Source: an uncultured Myxococcales bacterium (GTDB lineage Bacteria > Myxococcota_A > UBA9042). From it: a stretch of 32,711 nt of DNA. Below the pieces are notes generated by a model that searched no databases, was not told the origin of the DNA, and saw only the letters and a list, made by a program, of their open reading frames with translations. Of this stretch, positions 8,298-25,237 are shown piece by piece (the stretch's first letter is position 1; each line of letters opens with the position of its first letter). A program made the position numbers and the translations under genes. The DNA lies in NCBI GenBank assembly GCA_903955385.1, contig CAJBNH010000169.1, positions 1-32,711 of the forward strand, written 5' to 3'.

Positions 8298-8773
8298 AAG
8301 GTCCAGCCCAGGGCGCCCAGCGCAAGGTTGTCGCCGTCACTGATGGCGAATTGCACCTCGGCGCTCAGGTCGCGGATGCGCACGCCCGTACCGACCGTGG
8401 CCTTGGCCGAACCCCTGAATCGCGGGCCGATCCCCTGGATCCAGCCGAGCTCGGTCAGCAGGAAAGGCCCCCGGTGATACGACGTGAAGAACACGCGCAG
8501 CCCCACCGCCACGTCGGCGACGGCCGTCTGGTCGAATCGAATCGTGTCGAGCCAGAGGACGCCGGCTCGCTGCGTCCACCACGCAAAGTCCGCGATGACG
8601 TCTTCGTGGCGGACGAGGATGCCGCCGCTTCCCCAGGTCCTGCCGATGCCCGTGGCCAGGTCCACACCCCACGAAGCCGATTCCTCCGGTCCGTAGGGGT
8701 CCTCGAATCCCGCGGCCCAGGCAGGCGTGGCCACAAGCCATGTCAGGACCAAGCACAAGTACCTCAAACGCAT
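8294..8773 (-). CDS. Outer-membrane beta-barrel-like protein
   Basis: 159 aa. Signal peptide at residues 1-21 (MRLRYLCLVLTWLVATPAWA). The mature part begins GFEDPYGPEESASWGVDLAT and has alternating strands (GGILVRHEDVIADFAWW, VAVGLRVFFTSYHRGPFLL, AKATVGTGVRIRDLSAEVQF), ending LGALGWTF. The C-terminal GWTF is shared with the 7159 gene product, so the two may be related barrels. Start ATG 8773 fits the signal peptide and has GGGAGA just upstream; the longer in-frame start at 8845 has no support and would lie above the promoter. Confidence 0.75.
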   Translation of the reverse strand: MRLRYLCLVLTWLVATPAWAAGFEDPYGPEESASWGVDLATGIGRTWGSGGILVRHEDVIADFAWWTQRAGVLWLDTIRFDQTAVADVAVGLRVFFTSYHRGPFLLTELGWIQGIGPRFRGSAKATVGTGVRIRDLSAEVQFAISDGDNLALGALGWTF

Positions 8774-8816
8774 CCGCTCTCCCCCCCAAAGATGGTCTTC
8801 GTTCCCCCACCTGTGG

Positions 8817-8845
8817 AGCTTAGGACAGGCGTCCGGGATCGACAA
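8817..8845 (-). promoter_or_regulatory. Sigma-70-like promoter of the 8773 barrel gene
   Basis: Minus strand TTGTCG (8840-8845), 17-nt spacer, TAAGCT (8817-8822). Leader of about 37 nt to ATG 8773. Confidence 0.5.
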
Positions 8846-8856
8846 ACGTCGGGGAG

Positions 8857-8885
8857 TTGGCTCGCAGGACGGTTCAGGTCATGCT
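8857..8885 (+). promoter_or_regulatory. Sigma-70-like promoter of the 8908 lipoprotein gene
   Basis: TTGGCT (8857-8862), 17-nt spacer, CATGCT (8880-8885). It is back to back with the minus-strand promoter at 8817-8845. Predicted start about 8892. Confidence 0.45.
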
Positions 8886-8907
8886 GGGGTCCGGAGGTGG
8901 GGGGACC

Positions 8908-9297
8908 ATGCGGAGAGCGAATTCAAAGCGTATGCAGGTGCGAGCGGGGACAATCGCGGCGGCGCTGTGCGTCGTGGCGGCACAAGGGTGCATCCACTTC
9001 TGGAAGCCGGTGCCGCTTGGGCAGTTGCCGCGCCTCGTGGCAGAAGACCAGCCCCGCGTCCGCCTGAAGCTTCGGAATGGAGCCGACCTCGAGTCGCAGG
9101 CGACGGCCGTGCAGGACGACCAGCTCGTCGTGGCCCATCCTCGACTGGGAGAGACCTGGTTGCGGGTCGATCTGGCGGACATCCGCAAGGCCGACGTCGA
9201 GCGCGTACATCCGGGTTGGACGGGCCTCGCGTGGCTCGGCGGAACCGCGGCGGTGGTCGCAGTCCTCTTCATTCAGGCCATCTCGCAGATCCACTGA
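8908..9297 (+). CDS. Small lipoprotein with C-terminal membrane helix
   Basis: 129 aa, family not recognised. Lipoprotein signal with Cys28 (AAQGC), a short beta-rich middle (RVRLKLRNGADLESQATAVQ, VVAHPRLGETWLRVDLADI) and a hydrophobic C-terminal helix (LGGTAAVVAVLFIQAIS) close to the end. The middle part looks like a compact strand pair of the kind seen in small envelope lipoproteins with an RNG motif; this is only a resemblance. ATG 8908 has GGAGG 10 nt upstream and follows the promoter; a second ATG at 8932 is possible. A lipid anchor plus a terminal helix is an odd topology: it could bridge two leaflets or sit in one membrane. Confidence 0.7.
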   Translation: MRRANSKRMQVRAGTIAAALCVVAAQGCIHFWKPVPLGQLPRLVAEDQPRVRLKLRNGADLESQATAVQDDQLVVAHPRLGETWLRVDLADIRKADVERVHPGWTGLAWLGGTAAVVAVLFIQAISQIH

Positions 9298-9434
9298 CAC
9301 CCGGTGCCCGATCCCAGTTGTCCGCCCGGCCTGCGATTCACAGCGCCGTCAGGAACAGCGCGGGCCGGAACTCGTTGGCGACGACCCGACAAATTCCACC
9401 CATCCGCACTGGCAACCGCCCCAGACGATCCTGC

Positions 9435-9440
9435 TAGACT
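9435..9440 (+). promoter_or_regulatory. Possible -10 element of the 9527 operon
   Basis: TAGACT in the same context (CTGCTAGACT) as the -10 before 3676. The best -35 is TGGCAA 19 nt upstream, so the promoter is weak or activator-dependent. Predicted leader about 80 nt. Confidence 0.35.
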
Positions 9441-9526
9441 AGCCGAGGATCGAGCGCCGCCCCCCCGCCTCGCCTGTCCGTCGGCAGCACCCAGGGGCGG
9501 GCGGCAGACTCGCCAGCGGAGGCCCG

Positions 9527-10618
9527 ATGACGTTGCGTACCTGCCTGTTCTGCCTGCTGTTCGCGACCGCAACCGGCTGCAGCGAGCCCTCGACCCCCGC
9601 CGACACGACCAGCGCGTCCGACGTCGTCCAAGACACCGAGACCGACACCGTGTCCGACGTGCCGACCGACGCAGTCCCCGAAGTCCTGCCCGATGTCCCG
9701 CCCGACATCGCCCCCGACACGTCGGTGACCCCGGTGTGGGGCTGGATCTCGGTCATCGAGTGGAACGACACGTGCGACCAATGGAATTTGAAGACGAAGT
9801 GGTTGGGTGGCGTACGTGCCCAATTCGCGACCGAGCCGTCGTGGCCGCGGGCGCTGCCTCACACGCTCGGCTTCATGAAGCCGGTGGCCACCGTCGGCAA
9901 CTGCACGCTGTACGACCCCGGCTTGATGACCGAAAAGTGCATGACCGATTGCCTGTGCCTCGACAAGGGCATCGAGTGCTACAACGCCGATGAGACCGAG
10001 CGCTGGTGTGGCGACGACGAGATGTGCGTCGAGTCGGACCTGGACTTTCACGGCATCTGCCAGGCGTTGCCCGCGCACTATTCGGTCGGCACCTTGTCGC
10101 TGCAGGGGTTGAAGCAGCCACTGGCCCTGACGCCCGACGAGTTCGACCGCTACATGGCCCCCCAACTCACCAATCCCGACGACCTGTTCGACAAGGGCGA
10201 CGTCATCACCGCGACGACCTCGGGCGGCGACCTGCCGCCGATGACCTTCACGGCCAAGGGCGTGGCGCCGCTGGACCTGATCACGACCGACATCGAGCGA
10301 CCCAAGGGGGCGGGCAAGGCCGTGCTGGTCAAGTGGAAGACGGCCGACCCGGACGCCCGCGTGCAGGTGGCCATCCAGGCTGGCTCGCATGACCCCAATC
10401 CGCTGGCGGCGACCATCCTGTGCGACGTGCCCGACAGCGACGGTCAGGTGTCCATCGACGGTTCGCTGTTCGACAAGGCGCACGTGTTGTCGTGCAACGG
10501 CCAGTGGCTGCAGAAATGCAGTCGGGTCACGCGGTACACGCGGGACCGGCACTTGGCGGGGGGCAAGGAGGTCGAGCTGTTCGTTGGCAGTGCCCGCAAC
10601 CTGAAGGTGCTGTGGTGA
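9527..10618 (+). CDS. Asp-rich-tether lipoprotein paired with dikinase-like gene
   Basis: 363 aa. Lipoprotein signal with Cys18 (ATGC), then a long Asp/Thr/Val/Pro tether (about residues 19-65). The folded part has a Cys-rich segment around 125-170 (NCTLYDPGLMTEKC, CLCLDKGIECYN, RWCGDDEMC), probably disulfide bonded. A beta-rich C-terminal domain follows (AVLVKWKTADPDARVQVAIQ, ending RNLKVLW). No known family recognised. ATG 9527 has GGAGG 4 nt upstream. Its TGA overlaps the GTG start of the dikinase-like gene by 4 nt, so the two are translationally coupled and probably act together in the envelope. Confidence 0.8.
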   Translation: MTLRTCLFCLLFATATGCSEPSTPADTTSASDVVQDTETDTVSDVPTDAVPEVLPDVPPDIAPDTSVTPVWGWISVIEWNDTCDQWNLKTKWLGGVRAQFATEPSWPRALPHTLGFMKPVATVGNCTLYDPGLMTEKCMTDCLCLDKGIECYNADETERWCGDDEMCVESDLDFHGICQALPAHYSVGTLSLQGLKQPLALTPDEFDRYMAPQLTNPDDLFDKGDVITATTSGGDLPPMTFTAKGVAPLDLITTDIERPKGAGKAVLVKWKTADPDARVQVAIQAGSHDPNPLAATILCDVPDSDGQVSIDGSLFDKAHVLSCNGQWLQKCSRVTRYTRDRHLAGGKEVELFVGSARNLKVLW

Positions 10619-12792
10619 GGGACGAGTTGAACTGCAGGGCACACGCGGGGTTGGGCCCGATCGCGGCCGTCCTGTGCGTGCTGGCGGTGGCCTGCACCGA
10701 GTCGCCAGCATCGCCCGACGCGGACACGTCGGTGGACTTCGACGCGACCTCGTTCTCGGTCTGCGACCCTGCCGACCCGCACCCGATGGGGCCTGCCTGC
10801 TCGACTTTGGTGCAGACGGCCGCCGAATTCGACGCGTTGGCCAAGGCACCCACGGGTGTGAAGTATTGGTCCCGCGCGACGAAATACATGGTGCCGGCGC
10901 TGGACGACCCGGCGCTCGTGCCCCCCCTGATCCAGAATGCGTTTCGTTATCCCATGCACATGGAGTTTCTAACTTCACTGGTATTTCCGGGATTATCGCA
11001 GAGTGCCTACATGGCCATGGTGACCCAGCGGGCCACGCGAAAATACTATGCCGGCAATTTGGTGCGGATCGACGACCCGACCGCGGGGACGTTGTACGGC
11101 TTCACCGCCTACACCTCTGGAGGGCTGGCCGGCGCGTTGGAGCCCGTCGAAGCTCGCCACATCCGCGACGCCTTGCAGACGGTGTTCACCGCCGGGCCGC
11201 TCGCCTTCACCTTCGAGCCGTACGACGCCGCTGGACCGAAGAAGGCCAAGTCCTGGATCGACCCTGGCGTGCCCGTCTATTTCGCCGAACACGATGACGT
11301 GAAGGTCGAGGTCTACACCGCCGGCACCGCCTATGGCCGCGTGCGGCGCTATTCGCTCGACGCCTTCGAAAAGGCCGACGCGGCGGGTTTGCTGACTTAT
11401 CGCGACTTGGCCGTCGTCGACTCGGTGCCGTTTGACGTGGTCAACATCGTGGCCGGGCTGGTGACGGGCGGGCGGCAGTGGGAGCTGACCCACGTCAACG
11501 TGCGTCTGGCGCGCCGGGGGACGCCCAACCTGTTTGTGGACGCGGCCTTGGACACCCTCGCGCCTTGGGACGGTCAGTGGGTGCGCCTGGACGCCCGCAA
11601 GAAGACGGGCGACGAAAAGGTCGACGTGTACACCGTCACGCCCGCGACAGAGGCGGAGACTGACGCGTGGTGGGCCGAGCACCGCCCCAAGCTTGACCAC
11701 GTGCCTGCGATCGACAAGGCGTACGGAGGTTTGGACGCGCTGACGGCGATGGACACGGCGAACCAGACCGTGCCGTTGGTCACGCGCTTTGGCGGCAAGG
11801 CGACCAACCTGGCCAAGCTGTACGCGTTCTTGGCCGCCGAGCACCAGGTGCCGGGCTTCGGTATTCCGTTTGCGCCGTTCGAGGCCTTTCTCGACGCCAA
11901 CACCGTGCTCGACGCGCGCCAGAGTCCGCCTGAGGTCGTGACCCTGCGCAAGTACGTGCAGCGCCTGGCGATCGACCCCAAGATGGCGGCGGATCCCGCG
12001 TACCGCAAGTCGGTCCTGGCCGGACTGCGGGCGGCCATCGAGGCGGGACAGGTGCCGGCGCCACTGGTGCAGCAACTGGTCCAGCGCATCACCCAGATCT
12101 TTGGCGCGGCGAACGTGCGGGTGCGCTTCCGCTCGTCGTCCAACGTCGAGGATGGCCTGCAGTTCTCGGGCGCCGGCCTGTACGACTCCCAGACGGTCTG
12201 CGCGGCCGACTCGGTGGGCGGTGGCAGCGGCGGCGTCAGCGCGTGCGACCCGGCACAGGGCAAGCGCGACATCGAGCGGGGACTGCGCAAGGTGTGGGCG
12301 AGCCTCTACAGCGACAAGGCGTGGCAAGAGCGCGACTGGTACCAGGTGCCGCAAGATCAGGTGGGGATGGCGATTCTGGTGTCTTTGGGCTTTCCCGATG
12401 AGGTGGCCAATGGCGTGGCGTTCACCGGCGACCCGTCAGACGCGGCTGAGACGCGCTATCTGGTCAACGCGCAGGTCGGCGACGAGTCGGTCGTCAGCAA
12501 CGACGCGAGCAAGGTGCCCGAAAAGGACCTGCTTGGGCTGACCGACGGCAAGGTGACGGCCATCGTGCGCGCGCGCAGCTCGTCGCTGGCCGAACCGGGG
12601 GTGCCGGTGCTGACCGACGCGCAACTCACGCTGTTGGGCGAGCAAATGGCAGCCATCGCCAAGGCCTATCCGCTGGATCTGGAGGGGCACGACCCCGCGG
12701 AAATCCTGTTCGATCTCGAGTTCAAGGTGCAGGCAGGTACCGGGCTGCTGAAATTCAAGCAGATCCGACCCTTTCTTCGCGTATTGCCGTGA
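10615..12792 (+). CDS. Lipid-anchored dikinase-like protein (phosphohistidine + ATP-grasp)
   Basis: 725 aa. An export signal ends in lipidated Cys27 (LAVAC), placing the protein outside the cytoplasm. Around residue 293 the segment ELTHVNVRLARRGTP resembles the catalytic-His swivelling domain of PEP-utilising enzymes, closest by eye to glucan water dikinase (LSHVSVRAR). The C-terminal half is a PEP/pyruvate-dikinase ATP-grasp domain (PPDK_N type): FGGKATNLAKL with Lys395, RFRSSSNVEDGLQFSGAGLY with Glu512-Asp513, and a C-terminal metal/ATP motif ending FKQIRPF. Domain order (His domain, then ATP-grasp) matches glucan water dikinase, not PEP synthase, and no PEP/pyruvate barrel is present. Start GTG 10615 overlaps the upstream TGA and has AAGGT nearby. 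Family proteins transfer the ATP beta-phosphate via His; the acceptor here is unknown, and ATP supply outside the cell is a puzzle. Confidence 0.8.
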   Translation: MRDELNCRAHAGLGPIAAVLCVLAVACTESPASPDADTSVDFDATSFSVCDPADPHPMGPACSTLVQTAAEFDALAKAPTGVKYWSRATKYMVPALDDPALVPPLIQNAFRYPMHMEFLTSLVFPGLSQSAYMAMVTQRATRKYYAGNLVRIDDPTAGTLYGFTAYTSGGLAGALEPVEARHIRDALQTVFTAGPLAFTFEPYDAAGPKKAKSWIDPGVPVYFAEHDDVKVEVYTAGTAYGRVRRYSLDAFEKADAAGLLTYRDLAVVDSVPFDVVNIVAGLVTGGRQWELTHVNVRLARRGTPNLFVDAALDTLAPWDGQWVRLDARKKTGDEKVDVYTVTPATEAETDAWWAEHRPKLDHVPAIDKAYGGLDALTAMDTANQTVPLVTRFGGKATNLAKLYAFLAAEHQVPGFGIPFAPFEAFLDANTVLDARQSPPEVVTLRKYVQRLAIDPKMAADPAYRKSVLAGLRAAIEAGQVPAPLVQQLVQRITQIFGAANVRVRFRSSSNVEDGLQFSGAGLYDSQTVCAADSVGGGSGGVSACDPAQGKRDIERGLRKVWASLYSDKAWQERDWYQVPQDQVGMAILVSLGFPDEVANGVAFTGDPSDAAETRYLVNAQVGDESVVSNDASKVPEKDLLGLTDGKVTAIVRARSSSLAEPGVPVLTDAQLTLLGEQMAAIAKAYPLDLEGHDPAEILFDLEFKVQAGTGLLKFKQIRPFLRVLP

Positions 12793-12807: not shown

Positions 12808-13113
12808 CTACCTCGACCGTCGCGCGTGCTCGCGCCGCATGAACAGGTACAGCCCCTCGACCTTGCCGCGCGCCCACGGTGTCTTGCGCAGGAATTTCAG
12901 GCTGGAACCCATGCTCGGGTCCGACGAGAAGCAACGTGCCGGGATCTGCTTGGCCAGCCCCTCCCAGCCAAAATGCGTTACGAGCGCACGCAGCATCATC
13001 TCCAGCGTCACGCCGTGCAGCGGGTTGTTCTTCTGCTGGGTGGTGTGCGTCAGGTCCGGCGCAGGGGTCTCGGGCGGCGGTTGCACGGGCGTGGGGGCGT
13101 CGGGTTCTTGCAT
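12808..13113 (-). CDS. VF530 family protein (DUF2132)
   Basis: 101 aa. The conserved VF530/DUF2132 core is plain: NNPLHGVTLEMMLRALVTHF, GWEGLAKQIPARCFSSDPS and SSLKFLRKTPWARGKVEGLY. This small helical fold is described as DNA-binding-like but its role is not settled. A Pro/Thr-rich N-terminal tail of about 35 residues precedes the core. ATG 13113 has GAAGGAA 5 nt upstream and a promoter at 13152-13179. It is convergent with the dikinase-like gene (15 nt apart). Confidence 0.88.
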   Translation of the reverse strand: MQEPDAPTPVQPPPETPAPDLTHTTQQKNNPLHGVTLEMMLRALVTHFGWEGLAKQIPARCFSSDPSMGSSLKFLRKTPWARGKVEGLYLFMRREHARRSR

Positions 13114-13151
13114 GGCTTCCTTCGCAAGGCCGCCGGACGACCGCGGCGCGG

Positions 13152-13179
13152 AGTATGGTCCCCGGCGGCAGGGGGTCAA
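13152..13179 (-). promoter_or_regulatory. Sigma-70-like promoter of the VF530 gene
   Basis: Minus strand TTGACC (13174-13179), 16-nt spacer, CATACT (13152-13157); leader about 32 nt. Confidence 0.55.
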
Positions 13180-13212
13180 GGACGACCGGGACGCGAACCG
13201 CAGCAGCTTGCG

Positions 13213-13956
13213 TCAGTCCAGCCTCGCGCCCTTGGCCTTGTAGTACGCCGCCAGCCCGGCTCGTTTCAACTTGGCGAACATGGGGACGATGCCAGCCGTC
13301 CAGCCACGTGCCTCCGTCCCGCGGGTGGCAAGGTAGTCGGCGTACTGTCGGTCGTAGTCCGCCAAGTGATTCCGCATGGTTGCGTCGTCGGGATAGCGGT
13401 CGCGCAGCAGCACGGAGGCCAGAGGCAGGCGAGGTCGGGGCAGCGGGTCCTCGGCCGGAACGCCGATGCACATGCCGAACAGGGGGTAGACGCCCTGTGG
13501 CAGGCCGCCCAGCAGCGCATCGACCTCCTCGAGCTGGTTGCGCAGGCCGCCGACGTAGCAGACGCCGTACCCCATGGCCTCGAACGCCACGGCGATGTTC
13601 TGGGCGAACAGGCTGGCGTCGATGGCGGCGACCAGCAGCGCCTCGAACCCGGCCTCATACGGCTGCCCGGCATCGCTGCACGCCAGACGATGGCGGTGGG
13701 TGTCGCCGCAGATGACCAGAAACGCACCGCAGCGTTCGACCATGCGCTGGTTGCCGGCCAGAGGGACCAGCGCGGCCCGCACCGTCGGGTCGGTCACTGC
13801 CATGACGCAATAGGCCTGTGCACCGGTGCTGGTCGACGCCGCTTGACCTGCGCGCACGGCAGCTTGCACGTCGGCGTCGGGAACCGCCGCATCGGTGAAA
13901 CGGCGGATCGAGCGGTGGCGCATCAGCAGGTCAAGGGTTGGCAGGGAGGAGGTCAT
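13213..13956 (-). CDS. NfsA/Frp-type FMN nitroreductase family protein
   Basis: 247 aa, the usual length of NfsA/Frp flavin reductases, which use FMN and NAD(P)H to reduce nitro compounds, quinones or flavins in the cytoplasm. Family marks: LLMRHRSIRRFTD at the N-terminus (FMN phosphate-binding RSIRxF), AGQAASTSTGAQAYCVMAVT, IDASLFAQNIAVAFEAMGYG, VCYVGGLRN, and LFGMCIGVPAEDPLPRPRLP, which is characteristic of the NfsA subgroup. Start ATG 13956 gives the standard N-terminus; the frame extends further upstream but that part would overlap the next gene. The substrate cannot be told from sequence. Single-gene unit, possibly read from an extended -10 (TGCTATCGT) about 50 nt upstream. Confidence 0.85.
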   Translation of the reverse strand: MTSSLPTLDLLMRHRSIRRFTDAAVPDADVQAAVRAGQAASTSTGAQAYCVMAVTDPTVRAALVPLAGNQRMVERCGAFLVICGDTHRHRLACSDAGQPYEAGFEALLVAAIDASLFAQNIAVAFEAMGYGVCYVGGLRNQLEEVDALLGGLPQGVYPLFGMCIGVPAEDPLPRPRLPLASVLLRDRYPDDATMRNHLADYDRQYADYLATRGTEARGWTAGIVPMFAKLKRAGLAAYYKAKGARLD

Positions 13957-14065
13957 CGTCGGGCTCGCGGCGGCCAGCAAGGTGGCCTGAGGGCGCGACG
14001 ATAGCATTCGCCGCCCTTGGTCGTCGCGTGGTTGCGGGTCAGCGGGCCGGCGTGGAGCGGGAGGT

Positions 14066-16201
14066 CTAGCGGACGTACGCCACGGCACCGCGGTTCTGGT
14101 CGCAATTGCCGTTGATGCAGAACCACGATCCGCTGTCGAAGCCAGAGTGGTGCAGGATCATGTGGTTGCCGTAGCTGCCGTACTGCGCGTCCAGCGTCGT
14201 GTCGTGGGTGTCGATCCAGTGATACGACGTGGTGTTGTTGTTGCTCGCAAGACCTGCCCAGTTTCCGGCCAAGGCGTTCTGCAGCGTGCTCGCGCAGCGG
14301 CGCGTGTGGGTGTTGGTCGTCGAGGACCAGCCCGCGGGCGACTCGCTGTCGTGTACGCAGTAGGTTTCGACCGGCTGGCCATCGCCGCGTGCCCGCAGCA
14401 GCGTGTACTTCAGGGCATTGACGAACGCATCGGGCAGCTTGGCTGCCGACGACATGGTGGGGCTGGTCAGGTTGCCGACGGCCCCGCCTTGGCCCCAAAC
14501 GGCGACGCTGCTGGGGTACGTGCGCAGAATCAGCGTCCAGCCACCGCCGTCGGTCGACATGTCGCAGTACACCTGAATGGCGTCGGTGGTCGGAGCGCCG
14601 TTGACGTCGACCCAATACAGGCCGTCCTTCAGGGTCGCGCCCTCGGCGGTCGCCGCGTCGCGGACATTCAGGCAGGAAGTGCCTGCCTTGGCCTTGGTCA
14701 CACCCAAGGACGCGACGCAGATGGCGCTGCAGCCGTCGCCGTTCGCGTTGTTGCCGTCGTCGCACTCTTCGGTGACCTCGACGATGCCGTTGCCGCAGGT
14801 GTCGGCGAGACTGCGCCAAACGCCCAAGGCGCAGTAGCGGATCGCGGTGGACTTGGTGTCGAAGTACACGGCGCCCAGCACCGATGCGTTGCAGGGGAAC
14901 GGCGGGTCCGCGGCGGTCTTGAGGATCAACGCTCCGCCCAGACCGACCTTTGCGTTCGCCAGAACCTGAACCTGGATGCTCCAGCTCTGAATGGCGCCGT
15001 CCTGGCCGTTGTTCAGGAACGCGGTGTCGACGACCTGCAAGTACCACTTCCCCTTGGGATTCTTGCCCACCCAAGTGGTCAGGTCGCCGCTGATCGTCTT
15101 GGTCAGGGTGGGCCAAGTGGTCTTGACCGAGGTGCCCTTCGTCGTCTTGTCCCACAGCGTGTACTTGGTGTTGGCTGGGTCGATCACGAAGATTTGCATG
15201 TTGCTGGTGTCGCTGTTCGTCACTTCGGCGGTGATGGTCAGCGACTGGGCGGTTCCGAAGTCGGGCACGTCGATCATGTCGCTCACACCGACGGGGTTGT
15301 TGTCGGGGACGGCGACAGGCGTCTTGGTGCTGGCCGCGACCTCCTGAAACTGGTTGAACAGCAAGCCGTTCGAGATCTCGTCCAGACCGTCCTTGGGCAA
15401 GTTCTCAGCCGTCACGCCCCCGGCGACGCAGTCGTACGTCCCGTCGGCCTTGATGCCCTGCATCACCAGTCCGGTACCGCACGCCTTGCCTACCAGAGGG
15501 CCGCCCGCGACGTCGGCGTATTTGCCGGTGGCGGCGACCTTGGCCAGCGCGGCCGTCTTGGCATACGCGTCCAGATTGGGCGTCCCCTCCAGGTCCGCAT
15601 ACGCACCGGAGGTCGCCACGGCCGCCAGCGCCGCAAGCTTGGCGTACACCGTCAGGTCCGGCGCACCGCTCAGGTCGGCGTACTTGCCGCTGGTGGCGAC
15701 TGTGGACAGGTCTGCCGTTTTGGCATAGTCGGCCAGGACTTGCGCGTCCAGGTGGGCCAGCTTGACGCAGCCAGAGCAATCCAGCCCTTCAGCCAGCGAC
15801 GTCCTCAGCGCAAACGGCACCGACCCGACCCGTCTGCGGGCCAGCTCCGGGTCCTCAGCCACTTGGATGCCCAGCCACACTTCCGACGCCGACGAGAACA
15901 GCTTGGGGTCCAGAGGCGTCTTCGATCCCAATGCGTGCAGAAACGCACCGGATTTCACGGTGACCTTGACGGCGGCCTCGGTCCAGACGGCGTTGCCACC
16001 GACCTCGGCGCCATACAGCCGGAACGCCAGGTCGTAGTCGCCATCGGCCGCCGGAATGCCGTTGGCAGCCGTCAGCACGCCCTCGACCTGGACGGGAGGC
16101 AGGGTCACTGCGGCGGCAGGCAGCGCGCAGGCCAAGACCAGCAGAGCAGTCCACACGGCGCACCAGCAACGCACACCACGAGAGCCTTGTCGCGCGACCA
16201 T
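14066..16201 (-). CDS. Secreted mosaic protein: tail-fibre-like, P, DUF4215, fibrinogen-like
   Basis: 711 aa. Signal peptide (about residues 1-31, ending LPAAA). An N-terminal beta domain (GDYDLAFRLYGAEVGG) precedes three degenerate repeats at about 165-230 (GKYADLSGAPDL, GAYADLEGTPNL, GKYADVAG), like the SGSYNDLSNKPTI repeats of tail fibres. A proprotein-convertase P-type jelly roll follows at about 303-415 (WVGKNPKGKWYLQVVD, GAIQSWSIQVQVL), then a DUF4215 Myxococcota Cys-rich unit at about 467-495 (CGNGIVEVTEECDDGNNANG), then a fibrinogen-like start at about 508-562 (CDMSTDGGGWTLILRT) with its own C-terminal part ending CINGNCDQNRGAVAYVR. No protease or other catalytic motif is visible, so an adhesive or lectin-like surface role is the likeliest guess. 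Start ATG 16201 has GGGGAGG 5-6 nt upstream. Confidence 0.85.
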   Translation of the reverse strand: MVARQGSRGVRCWCAVWTALLVLACALPAAAVTLPPVQVEGVLTAANGIPAADGDYDLAFRLYGAEVGGNAVWTEAAVKVTVKSGAFLHALGSKTPLDPKLFSSASEVWLGIQVAEDPELARRRVGSVPFALRTSLAEGLDCSGCVKLAHLDAQVLADYAKTADLSTVATSGKYADLSGAPDLTVYAKLAALAAVATSGAYADLEGTPNLDAYAKTAALAKVAATGKYADVAGGPLVGKACGTGLVMQGIKADGTYDCVAGGVTAENLPKDGLDEISNGLLFNQFQEVAASTKTPVAVPDNNPVGVSDMIDVPDFGTAQSLTITAEVTNSDTSNMQIFVIDPANTKYTLWDKTTKGTSVKTTWPTLTKTISGDLTTWVGKNPKGKWYLQVVDTAFLNNGQDGAIQSWSIQVQVLANAKVGLGGALILKTAADPPFPCNASVLGAVYFDTKSTAIRYCALGVWRSLADTCGNGIVEVTEECDDGNNANGDGCSAICVASLGVTKAKAGTSCLNVRDAATAEGATLKDGLYWVDVNGAPTTDAIQVYCDMSTDGGGWTLILRTYPSSVAVWGQGGAVGNLTSPTMSSAAKLPDAFVNALKYTLLRARGDGQPVETYCVHDSESPAGWSSTTNTHTRRCASTLQNALAGNWAGLASNNNTTSYHWIDTHDTTLDAQYGSYGNHMILHHSGFDSGSWFCINGNCDQNRGAVAYVR

Positions 16202-21493: not shown

Positions 21494-24400
21494 TCACTGG
21501 CCGAAGCCGAGCACGTAGGTCGGCGTGAGCTTGCTCGCCCCTGTGGTGCCGTCGCCCATCTGACCCACGTCGTTGTGGCCCCAGCACTGCACCTTGGGGC
21601 CCTGGATCAGCGCGCAGGTGTGCGACGAGCCCACGGTCACCGCCGTCACGGCCGCGCCCAGCGGCGCCACCTGGGTCGGCGTCGTCTGGCTGGCACTTGC
21701 AGAGCCCTTCCCCGTCTGTCCATAGCCGTTGGCGCCCCAGCAGTTCACTGCGCCCGACTTCAGGATCGCGCAGGTGTGCAGCCCCTGACCGGTCGCCAGG
21801 CCGTCTACGCCAGCGGCAAGGGTCGCCACAGCGACGGGCTTGGTCTTGCCTGTGGTCGAGCCGTCGCCCAGCTGGCCCGCCGACGCGTCGCCCCAGCACA
21901 CGACAGCCTCGCCGACCAGCGCACACGCGTGCTCGAAGCCGGCCGCGACCCCCACCGTGCTGGTCGACAGGCCGAAAACCAGCGTAGGAATCGACTTCAG
22001 GTTGCCGCTGGTGCCGTCGCCGATCTGGCCCTTGTTGTTGCGTCCCCAGCATTTGGTTGCACCGTCCGCGAGCCTGACGCACGAGTGGTTCCCGGCGGCG
22101 ACAAGCTGCAGCGGGTCGGACCCCAACCATGCGACCGATAGCGGCGAAGGCAGGTTGCCTCCTGCGAAATTCGTGCCGCCTTGGCCGTACTCGTTGTTGC
22201 CCCAGCACTTGATGGTGGCATCGGTGAGGATGGCGCAAGAGTGGGTCGCGCCGGCGGCGATGGCCGTCGCTGTGGTGATGTTCTTGACGGCAACTGGGGT
22301 CTTGGCGTTTGTCGTCGTGCCGTCGCCCAACTGTGCATTCGAGTTGTAGCCCCAGCACTTGACGGCACCCGACACCAGCGCACACGAGTGGTTCAGACCC
22401 AGTGCGATGGACGACACGCCCGACAACCCTGTGACGGCGACCGGCTGCGGCGAGTCCGTGGTCGAGCCATTGCCCAGCTGGCCGTAGGCGTTCGCCCCCC
22501 AGCACACCACGGTACCGGCGGTGGTCAGGATGCACGTGTGGTCTCCGCCCGCGACGACGCTGGCTGCCTCGCCCGCCGCCTTCTCGACGCAAGAGCCCTC
22601 CTTGCAGATCATGTTGTCGCCGCACGCCGTGCCCCACTGCGCGTTGGTGTGGGAGCACTCGGCGTTCGCGCAGCCCTCCACCGTGCAGGCGTTGGCGTCG
22701 TCGCAGGACTTGGGCTCCCACAACGTCCCGTCGGCGCTGCACATGCCCAACTTGTCGGCCTGGCAGGTGGCCACGTTGGGGTCGCAGACCTTGGGCACGC
22801 ACTTGTCGACCTTGCAGACCGCCGTCTTGGCCGCGCAGTCGTCGCTCAGCTTCCACGTTGTCCCCGTCGGGTCGCACGCTTGCAGGTTGTTCACGTCGCA
22901 CTTCAGCGCGGCCGGCGTGCAGATCTTGTCCTTGCACGCGCCGGACTCGCACGCCTGATTCGCGGGGCAATCCGTCGCCGTCCACGCGGTGCCGGTCGCG
23001 TTGCAGGTCGCCAGCTTGCCCGTCTGGCACTCTGTCGCTGCGGGGGCGCACAGGGTGACGACGCACTTGTTGCCGACACACGCCTGTCCCTGCGAGCACG
23101 CCACCGACGTCCACGCGGTGCCGGTGTCGTTGCACGTCGCGACCTTGCCCTGCTGGCACTCGACCGCCTTGGCCGTGCAGACCTTGGCCAGGCACTTGTT
23201 GGTGACGCAGACCTCGTTGGCGCCGCACGCGACCTTGACCCATGCGGTGCCGGTTGCGTTGCAGGTGGCGACCTGACCGGACTGGCACTCGACCGCGCCT
23301 GCGGTGCACACCTTGGCCAGGCACTTGTCGACGACGCACACGGTGTTGACGGCGCAAGTGGCGAAAGTCCACGCGGTTGCATTGGCGTTGCAGGTCGCGA
23401 CCTTGCCGCCTTGGCACTCGATCTTGCCGGGCTCGCAAGTCGGCACGATGCACTGCGAGTCGATGCAAATGGCCTCGAACGCGCCGCAGTCCTGCTCGAT
23501 CTGATAGCCGGTGCCGGTTGCATCGCAGCGGACCACTTGCTTGGCATCGCACTTCAGCTTCTCAGGCACGCAGATGATCGGCTTGCAGGCACCCTCTGCG
23601 CAGGCGGTGTCGACGGGGCAGGATTGCATGATCCAGCCGGCGCCCACCTCGTTGCAGATCGCGAGCTTGCCCGCTTGGCATGACGACGAGTCGGGCGTGC
23701 ACAGCTTGGGCTGACACGCCCCCTTGTCGCAGTACTGCAGCTTCGCGCCGCAGTCGTCGCCCTTGAACCAGCCGGTGCCGTTGTCGGCGCACGTCATGAC
23801 GACCGCGCCCTCACACACTTTGCTGCCTGCCGGGCACATCACCGCCTGGCAGCCGCCGTTCAGGCAGTTCTTGCCCGTGACGCTGCAGTCCTCGGTGTCG
23901 GTCCATGCCGAACCAGCCGAGTTGCAGGTCTTGACGACCTTGCCCTCGCACTTGCTCTCAGCCGGGGTGCACACCTTGGCACTGCACTTGCCGGCGGCAC
24001 ACACCTGGTCGGACGGGCAGGGCATCTGCCACCAGCCGGTTCCGTCGTCCTTGCAGGTCGCGACCAGACCGTTCTGACACTCCGCCGTGCCCCCGGTGCA
24101 GACGGCCGCGCCGCACTGACCGTCGATGCACAGCAGGCCATCGGTGGCGCAGTCGTGCTGGAAAGTCGTCTCGGTGCCTGCGGGATTGCACAGGCGTTGG
24201 GACGTGCCGTCGCACTGCAGCTGGCCGGGCACGCACACGATGGGCAGGCAGTTGCCGCCTTCGCACGCCATGCCTTGGTCGCAAGCCGCCTGCTCCCAGC
24301 CCTGTCCGTCGGCCGAGCAGGTGGCCTTGGTGGCCAGGTCGGTGCAAGTCACGGCGTCGGGCAGACACACGGCCGCGACGCATTCGCCTTCGACGCAAAC

Positions 24401-25237
24401 CTGCTGCTCGCCGCCCGGGCCGGGCAGGCCGCAGTCGGCGATTTCGGTCGCGGTGGCACCCAGCAGGTCGCACTGCATCGCGAGGCCGTCCTTGCAGTAG
24501 GCGGCACCGGGCGGGCAGGACAGGGGCGTGCACGCGGCGGAACCCTCTGTCTCTGTGCAGACTTGCGGGTCTCCCTCTGCCGTGTCGGTGCAGGGCGTCA
24601 CCGTGCTGCTCTGGCCGTCGGCCGCACACGTCACGAGGTCGCCGTCCTGGTTGCACGTCACGCTCGACGCGACGCAGCTCGTGGGGACGCACACCGCATC
24701 GACGCAAGTCTGCGGCTCAGGGCACGCGACCTTGTCCCACCCCGTTCCGGCTTCGTTGCAGGTCGCCACCCCGGGCAGGTTGCAGTTGCTCTCGGTCTCG
24801 TTGCACGAAATCGCGCACTCGGTCTCGTTGGGCGTGCAAATGACGGGACCGCAGATGCCGTTGTGGCACGCCTCGCCGAATTCGCAGTTCTGGTCGATCC
24901 AACCCGATCCGTTTCCGGCGCAGAAGCTGAGGGATGTGAGGTTCTGGCAAATCGCCTCGTCGTAGCAGACGTCGGCCTTGCATGTGTCGACGTCGCACCA
25001 TTGGGACTTGGCACAGTCGTCGTCGGTCACGCACGTCTGCCCCGTCGTCTCGGTGACGTCGGAGGCGTCGTCCACGCCGTCAGGCAACGCGGCGTCGTCC
25101 GTGCCATCGTCGACCTCAGCGGCGTCCGCGGGGGCGAAAGCGTCGGCTGGGGGGATGTCCTGGGTGCCGCAGCCGATGGCAAGCAGCGTTGTCGCAAGGC
25201 AGGCGAAGAGGAAAGAGGCGGAGGGCTTGCGCAGCAT
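21494..25237 (-). CDS. Giant lipoprotein: 17 Cys-rich repeats then RCC1 propeller
   Basis: 1247 aa. Lipoprotein signal with Cys23 (AIGC), then an Asp/Ala-rich tether (about 24-66). Residues about 69-885 hold some 17 tandem units of 43-50 residues, each with about six Cys in the pattern C-x(6-7)-C, ATC, a GTAW-like turn, then C, C and C. From about 893 to the end come seven RCC1-type blades (repeats of HTC/HSCAL, CWG, GQLGDGT), a seven-bladed propeller with a Cys in most HxC and CWG motifs. Both halves are typical of Myxococcota surface proteins; function is unknown, probably binding or adhesion. Start ATG 25237 follows a good promoter. Several long open frames on the opposite strand are products of codon bias. 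Confidence 0.9.
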   Translation of the reverse strand: MLRKPSASFLFACLATTLLAIGCGTQDIPPADAFAPADAAEVDDGTDDAALPDGVDDASDVTETTGQTCVTDDDCAKSQWCDVDTCKADVCYDEAICQNLTSLSFCAGNGSGWIDQNCEFGEACHNGICGPVICTPNETECAISCNETESNCNLPGVATCNEAGTGWDKVACPEPQTCVDAVCVPTSCVASSVTCNQDGDLVTCAADGQSSTVTPCTDTAEGDPQVCTETEGSAACTPLSCPPGAAYCKDGLAMQCDLLGATATEIADCGLPGPGGEQQVCVEGECVAAVCLPDAVTCTDLATKATCSADGQGWEQAACDQGMACEGGNCLPIVCVPGQLQCDGTSQRLCNPAGTETTFQHDCATDGLLCIDGQCGAAVCTGGTAECQNGLVATCKDDGTGWWQMPCPSDQVCAAGKCSAKVCTPAESKCEGKVVKTCNSAGSAWTDTEDCSVTGKNCLNGGCQAVMCPAGSKVCEGAVVMTCADNGTGWFKGDDCGAKLQYCDKGACQPKLCTPDSSSCQAGKLAICNEVGAGWIMQSCPVDTACAEGACKPIICVPEKLKCDAKQVVRCDATGTGYQIEQDCGAFEAICIDSQCIVPTCEPGKIECQGGKVATCNANATAWTFATCAVNTVCVVDKCLAKVCTAGAVECQSGQVATCNATGTAWVKVACGANEVCVTNKCLAKVCTAKAVECQQGKVATCNDTGTAWTSVACSQGQACVGNKCVVTLCAPAATECQTGKLATCNATGTAWTATDCPANQACESGACKDKICTPAALKCDVNNLQACDPTGTTWKLSDDCAAKTAVCKVDKCVPKVCDPNVATCQADKLGMCSADGTLWEPKSCDDANACTVEGCANAECSHTNAQWGTACGDNMICKEGSCVEKAAGEAASVVAGGDHTCILTTAGTVVCWGANAYGQLGNGSTTDSPQPVAVTGLSGVSSIALGLNHSCALVSGAVKCWGYNSNAQLGDGTTTNAKTPVAVKNITTATAIAAGATHSCAILTDATIKCWGNNEYGQGGTNFAGGNLPSPLSVAWLGSDPLQLVAAGNHSCVRLADGATKCWGRNNKGQIGDGTSGNLKSIPTLVFGLSTSTVGVAAGFEHACALVGEAVVCWGDASAGQLGDGSTTGKTKPVAVATLAAGVDGLATGQGLHTCAILKSGAVNCWGANGYGQTGKGSASASQTTPTQVAPLGAAVTAVTVGSSHTCALIQGPKVQCWGHNDVGQMGDGTTGASKLTPTYVLGFGQ
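22922..23437 (-). repeat. Four near-identical 129-bp coding repeats
   Basis: Inside the giant lipoprotein gene, repeat units 12-15 (residues 601-772) are each exactly 43 codons and share cores such as VATCN(A/D)TGTAW and NKCLAKVCTA. Other units vary in length (42-55) and sequence, so these four look recently duplicated or homogenised. Confidence 0.75.

What the first reader, a model, noticed from the sequence alone, without database searches (positions are those of the whole stretch)
10615..12792. Lipid-anchored dikinase-like enzyme predicted outside the cytoplasm
The protein has a clear lipobox, a candidate phosphohistidine segment (His293 in ELTHVNVRLAR, close to glucan water dikinase LSHVSVRAR) and an intact-looking ATP-grasp domain (Lys395, Glu512-Asp513, QIRPF). 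Dikinases need ATP, which is scarce outside the cytoplasm. Either it uses ATP released from lysed cells or prey, or it phosphorylates a surface glycan or lipid in an unknown way, or it has been re-purposed as a binding protein.
Basis: partly seen in the sequence, partly recalled or inferred. Interest (0 to 1): 0.65.

Follow-up and report, generated by a model that had tools for sequence, protein, structure and literature searches.

The report
Exported dikinase with lipoprotein partner
This bacterium carries an ATP-using phosphate-transfer enzyme that by every sequence sign is anchored by a lipid outside the cell interior, where ATP is scarce; hundreds of relatives exist, those examined keep both the export signal and the full active site, and many keep an unknown lipoprotein gene beside it, so it looks like an undescribed extracellular phosphorylation system.

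Summary
Window 10615-12792 (+) encodes a 725-aa protein with a lipoprotein signal (Cys27), an unnamed N-terminal domain (about 45-232), a swivelling phosphohistidine domain (about 233-330, His293) and a C-terminal PPDK_N ATP-grasp domain (391-720, E 1.5e-20). In 70-73 relatives found by plain homology His293, Lys395, Arg506, Glu512, Asp513, Gln716 and Arg718 never vary. Export is equally a family trait: lipobox in most Myxococcota members, ordinary signal peptides in Planctomycetota, fusions to dockerin, FG-GAP and lamin-tail domains. The upstream gene (9527-10618), whose stop overlaps the dikinase start, is a second lipoprotein of an unnamed family that sits beside dikinases in 40 distinct loci, upstream, downstream or on the opposite strand. 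A second dikinase clade has a different unnamed lipoprotein beside it. Most likely this is an active extracytoplasmic water-dikinase-type phosphotransferase using ATP from lysed cells; donor, acceptor and activity are inferred. It resembles glucan water dikinase in domain order and rifampin phosphotransferase/PEP synthase in its ATP site, but is a member of none of these.

The parts
9527..10618 (+). Partner gene: 363-aa lipoprotein (lipobox ...FATATGC18), Cys-rich segment followed by Ig-like beta-sandwich region; unnamed family
   Evidence: Relatives lie beside dikinases in 40 distinct loci (37 clade A plus the window, L075 and L076); invariant C126, C151, C167, C178, W270, H288, C299, G306 in 39 rows; no Pfam or NCBIfam match for the window protein; model pLDDT 78.8, only weak Ig-like fold matches. 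GGAGG lies four bases before the ATG.
10615..12792 (+). Exported dikinase-like enzyme, 725 aa, GTG start overlapping the stop of the partner gene
   Evidence: AlphaFold2 pLDDT 87.6, pTM 0.79
10615..10695 (+). Lipoprotein signal peptide and lipobox, Cys27
   Evidence: Sequence; family column C27 is Cys in 57 of 60; control rates
10747..11310 (+). N-terminal domain of unknown family (about residues 45-232) with Lys90 and invariant His115; candidate acceptor-side domain
   Evidence: H115 68/68 and K90 66/68; 140/140 and 137/140 in the larger set; no Pfam match
11311..11604 (+). Phosphohistidine swivel domain (about residues 233-330)
   Evidence: Motif and profile alignments; some relatives hit PF00391 and PF22973
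11491..11493 (+). His293 codon, predicted phosphohistidine
   Evidence: 72/72
11785..12774 (+). PPDK_N ATP-grasp domain (residues 391-720)
   Evidence: Pfam E 1.5e-20; Foldseek 5hv1 E 2.5e-17
11797..11799 (+). Lys395 codon, counterpart of Lys22 of PPDK and RPH
   Evidence: 73/73; GGK motif aligned with PEP synthases; role of Lys22 in PMC4844700
12148..12153 (+). Glu512-Asp513 codons in RFRSSSNVED
   Evidence: 73/73 each
12712..12768 (+). D700-x-E702 ... Q716-x-R718, end of the ATP site
   Evidence: 71/71, 70/70, 70/70, 70/70

Best explanation
A catalytically competent, exported, lipid-anchored phosphotransferase of the dikinase superfamily. Shown by sequence: the lipoprotein signal, the phosphohistidine plus ATP-grasp layout with the known key residues, conservation of both, and a conserved lipoprotein gene beside it. 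Inferred: it binds Mg-ATP present in the periplasm or outside the cell (released by lysed neighbours or prey), transfers the beta phosphate to His293 with release of AMP and phosphate, and the swivel domain then carries the phosphate to an acceptor held by the N-terminal domain (His115, Lys90) and/or by the partner lipoprotein. The acceptor is more likely an envelope or extracellular glycan or small molecule than pyruvate.
For: Active-site invariance in 70-73 relatives found by plain homology and near-invariance in a 145-row set. ATP-domain fold closest to AMPPNP-bound rifampin phosphotransferase, with profile matches to PEP synthases. Export: lipobox or signal peptide in most relatives, enriched over control ORFs; extracellular fusion domains dockerin, FG-GAP, LTD. 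Partner lipoprotein adjacent in 30 of 38 clade A loci with more than 0.9 kb held on both sides, and in the window and its two nearest relatives, with the order changed many times. The two other PPDK_N proteins of this genome (contigs C35 and C80) show no such N-terminal signal by eye. RPH has an ATP Km of 8.4 uM (PMC4844700), so micromolar ATP could suffice.
Against: No biochemistry exists. ATP outside the cytoplasm is low and transient. No acceptor can be named. The window protein departs from the family at two well-conserved columns (G169 where most have D; W289 where most have T). The phosphohistidine domain is below detection by PF00391 in the window protein itself. No coordinates were available to place His293 against the ATP site.
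Confidence: 0.62

Rival explanations
1. An exported nucleotide-consuming or nucleotide-sensing lipoprotein: it binds or hydrolyses extracellular ATP (His293 phosphate goes to water) for scavenging or as a signal of nearby lysis; there is no dedicated acceptor.
For: Same intact ATP and His sites; lysis-derived ATP is the plausible donor in any case; RPH variants that have lost the second transfer still consume ATP (PMC4844700).
Against: The separate N-terminal domain with invariant His115 and the conserved partners suggest a second substrate.
Confidence: 0.2
2. A non-catalytic binding protein that kept the fold.
For: Scarcity of ATP outside the cytoplasm (general knowledge).
Against: His, Lys, Arg, Glu, Gln and Arg of the active site invariant across deep clades at about 30% identity; a pure binder would be expected to lose some.
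Confidence: 0.08
3. The export signal is misread and the enzyme is cytoplasmic.
For: The start codon is GTG and was not mapped; lipobox calls here rest on simple rules, not a trained predictor.
Against: Signal conserved at the same alignment column (57/60), enriched over controls, replaced by other signal peptides in Planctomycetota, and extracellular domains are fused on.
Confidence: 0.04
4. The enzyme runs with a donor other than ATP (for example polyphosphate, pyrophosphate or a phosphorylated metabolite), or backwards to make ATP.
For: PPDK runs in the ATP-forming direction in bacteria and protozoa (abstract of PMC5371819).
Against: Residues that position the ATP phosphates (Lys22 and Arg117 of RPH, PMC4844700) have invariant counterparts by motif; nothing points to another donor.
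Confidence: 0.06

Closest known systems
Alpha-glucan water dikinase / phosphoglucan water dikinase (GWD, PWD)
   Same: Order of parts: acceptor-side region, phosphohistidine domain, then C-terminal ATP-grasp (order of GWD from general knowledge); His motif ELTHVNVR/TPLSHVNV like LSHVSVR; one relative hits GWD1_pHisD at 1.2e-5
   Different: No starch-binding module found by Pfam; GWD is a plastidial plant enzyme, this is an exported bacterial lipoprotein; acceptor unknown
Rifampin phosphotransferase (RPH-Lm, 5hv1)
   Same: Best structural match of the ATP-grasp domain (E 2.5e-17); Lys, Arg and Gln-x-Arg residues
   Different: Opposite order (ATP-grasp first, His last; PMC4844700), no rifampin-binding domain matched, far below the NCBIfam cut-off (28.6 against 999 bits)
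PEP synthase (pyruvate, water dikinase)
   Same: ATP-grasp profile match E 1.5e-39 to 9dae and a weak match of the swivel domain to 8a8e
   Different: Different order, no PEP-utilizers C-terminal barrel, TIGR01418 31.2 against 739.75 bits, exported
HpeHI two-component kinase (9goj)
   Same: ATP-grasp domain match; phosphohistidine mechanism on a non-pyruvate substrate (PMC12167813)
   Different: No export or membrane link in the passages searched; described as a two-component enzyme, whereas here both parts are in one chain
Exported kinases CotH and Fam20
   Same: Phosphorylation outside the cytosol as a function (PMC7821199, PMC7948968)
   Different: Unrelated kinase folds without ATP-grasp or phosphohistidine domains (general knowledge)

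Membership tests
PPDK_N / phosphohistidine dikinase superfamily | ATP-grasp domain PF01326 above cut-off | tested here: met
   74.2 bits against 27; 46 of 46 members match at E <= 0.01
PPDK_N / phosphohistidine dikinase superfamily | Swivel phosphohistidine domain with catalytic His | tested here: met
   His293 72/72; PF00391 only in 3 of 46 members, not in the window protein
Glucan / phosphoglucan water dikinase | Phosphohistidine domain before a C-terminal ATP-grasp domain | tested here: met
   Domain positions about 233-330 and 391-720
Glucan / phosphoglucan water dikinase | Starch-binding module (CBM45 or CBM20) | tested here: not met
   No such Pfam match in the window protein or 45 relatives
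Glucan / phosphoglucan water dikinase | GWD1_pHisD (PF22973) | tested here: inconclusive
   1 of 46 members at 1.2e-5; absent in the window protein; L083 at 0.0038, below cut-off
Glucan / phosphoglucan water dikinase | Phosphorylates alpha-glucan | not testable with these tools
   Needs biochemistry
PEP synthase | Whole-protein model TIGR01418 above cut-off | tested here: not met
   31.2 against 739.75 bits
PEP synthase | C-terminal PEP/pyruvate barrel (PF02896) | tested here: not met
   No match
Rifampin phosphotransferase | NF041857 above cut-off | tested here: not met
   28.6 against 999 bits
Bacterial lipoprotein | Signal peptide with lipobox Cys | tested here: met
   Sequence, and family enrichment against controls
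Bacterial lipoprotein | Lipid attachment and location outside the cytoplasm | not testable with these tools
   Needs labelling and fractionation

The most novel reading that the evidence does not exclude
A widespread, undescribed extracytoplasmic phosphorylation system: a lipid-anchored water dikinase working with dedicated lipoprotein partners (different partner families in different clades), which phosphorylates an envelope or extracellular substrate with ATP obtained outside the cell.
Probability: 0.45. Interest if true: 0.85.

Novelty: new variant of a known kind. Interest (0 to 1): 0.68.

Why it matters
The dikinases in the papers read here act on pyruvate, starch, rifampin or hydroxyphenylethanones, and no exported one turned up. 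If these exported ones work, energy-dependent phosphate transfer occurs at the bacterial surface without the cell's own cytoplasmic ATP, possibly paid for by lysed neighbours or prey. It also gives a testable context to at least two lipoprotein families that have no name.

Tried and rejected
Its search patterns contain the His motif and a GAGLY motif, so His293 in that set is biased; the unbiased count is 72/72 from the loci. An apparent downstream gene 12826-14004 (+) was rejected: it lies over VF530 and nitroreductase genes on the minus strand. No paper on an exported or lipoprotein dikinase turned up in eight searches of the held open-access library. The partner's fold search gave nothing below 1e-3. 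The His293-to-ATP distance could not be computed. Catalytic metal ligands of the SMP-30-like propeller were not established.

Full report
What is there. The frame 10615-12792 (+) is open and encodes 725 residues. It begins with GTG, overlapping the TGA of the gene upstream, with a purine-rich stretch in front. The first 27 residues form a lipoprotein signal (GLGPIAAVLCVLAVAC). Pfam finds PPDK_N at 391-720, E 1.5e-20. The predicted structure is good (pLDDT 87.6, pTM 0.79), and the ATP-grasp part matches rifampin phosphotransferase with AMPPNP (5hv1, E 2.5e-17), PEP synthase and PPDK.

Is the active site kept? A homology search in 53 genomes (the window's own and its relatives) gave matches in 35 of them, including three paralogues in the window's own genome besides the window copy. 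In the aligned members His293 is 72/72, Lys395 73/73, Arg506 73/73, Glu512 and Asp513 73/73, Asp700 71/71, and Glu702, Gln716 and Arg718 70/70. These loci were found by homology to the whole protein, not by motif. A wider set of 145 rows, part of it fetched with patterns that include the His motif and therefore biased there, gives His293, Lys395, Arg506 and Glu512 145/145, Arg718 139/139, and single exceptions at Asp513, Glu702 and Gln716. Lys22 and Arg117 of RPH, the counterparts of Lys395 and (by motif) Arg506, position the ATP phosphates (PMC4844700). The residues that make catalysis possible are under strong constraint.

Is it exported? In the homology set the Cys27 column is Cys in 57 of 60 rows with a residue there. 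A strict lipobox rule, applied equally, flags 65 of 124 dikinases, 22 of 39 clade A partners and 11 of 18 clade B partners, but 51 of 1053 other ORFs. A looser rule flags 57 of 75 5'-complete members of the wide set, and 14 more have a hydrophobic N-terminal stretch, several of them Planctomycetota with signal peptides of the ordinary kind. Some members carry dockerin, FG-GAP repeats or lamin-tail domains, which are expected outside cells (general knowledge). The two other PPDK_N proteins in the same genome, on contigs C35 and C80, show no such signal by eye.

The gene pair. The upstream gene 9527-10618 encodes a 363-aa lipoprotein with GGAGG four bases before its ATG. Its relatives form a family with invariant Cys126, Cys151, Cys167, Cys178, Trp270, His288, Cys299 and Gly306, with no convincing Pfam match, no NCBIfam match for the window protein and no PDB match; the model is beta-rich with weak Ig-like matches only. 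It lies beside the dikinase in 37 of 48 members of one clade (30 of 38 where more than 0.9 kb is held on both sides), and in the window and its two nearest relatives, which fall in a different clade. By my count of the list, in the 37 clade A loci it is downstream in 22, upstream on the same strand in 9 and on the opposite strand in 6. A link kept through so many rearrangements points to joint function. Comparing, I count 16 of 44 strong partner matches (E up to 1e-25) in 53 genomes near a dikinase on the same contig; the others lie elsewhere, so the family is not exclusive to this pair.

Other partners. A second dikinase clade (about 800 aa) has a different unnamed lipoprotein with a GGNHHND...YHSSFGFGWR motif beside it in 17 of 27 members, 9 of 11 with enough context. 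Clade A loci also carry a propeller lipoprotein of the SMP-30/gluconolactonase group (PF08450) in 21 of 48 members. No such propeller was found near the window's own pair.

How it most likely works. Shown: signal, domain order, intact site, conserved partner. Inferred: ATP from lysed cells or prey phosphorylates His293, and the swivel domain hands the phosphate to an acceptor at the N-terminal domain (invariant His115, conserved Lys90) or on the partner. RPH works with an ATP Km near 8 uM (PMC4844700), so low ATP is not prohibitive. Nothing here identifies the acceptor.

Known kinds. The order of parts is that of glucan water dikinase, for which a 2026 review says high-resolution structure is missing (PMC12892837); the starch-binding module is absent and the GWD phosphohistidine model hits one relative of 46. 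PEP synthase and rifampin phosphotransferase models fall far below their cut-offs. It therefore belongs to the superfamily but to no named family tested. I found no paper on an exported dikinase in the held library; that library is open-access only.

Spread.

Noticed in passing
L124:3686-4702, L047:633-1403, L139:7838-8662 and others: Unnamed lipoprotein family beside clade B dikinases, motif GGNHHND...YHSSFGFGWRAC, no Pfam match; second candidate partner family.
   Followed up: partly
L010:2-1141, L018:3-1160, L125:222-1493: SMP-30/gluconolactonase-type propeller lipoprotein beside many clade A dikinases; L114 and L123 hold two copies.
   Followed up: partly
L078, L083, L080 (with L079, L081, L082, L105): Planctomycetota/Omnitrophota dikinases of about 1000-1900 aa, some with dockerin or long FG-GAP propeller regions and an unnamed C-terminal region.
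   Followed up: partly
L170 (G000:C80:12386-13504): PPDK_N domain in a long frame whose N-terminus looks like a response-regulator receiver; possible signalling fusion, not scanned.
   Followed up: no
window 14066-16201 (-): Protein combining proprotein-convertase P domain, DUF4215-like and fibrinogen/collagen C-terminal-like matches.
   Followed up: no
window 21494-25237 (-): 1247-aa protein with RCC1 repeats.
   Followed up: no
window 12808-13179 (-) and 13213-14088 (-): VF530 DNA-binding protein and nitroreductase genes, convergent with the dikinase.
   Followed up: partly
L122:7579-8682 and 8657-9772: Two tandem copies of the clade A partner gene next to one dikinase.
   Followed up: no
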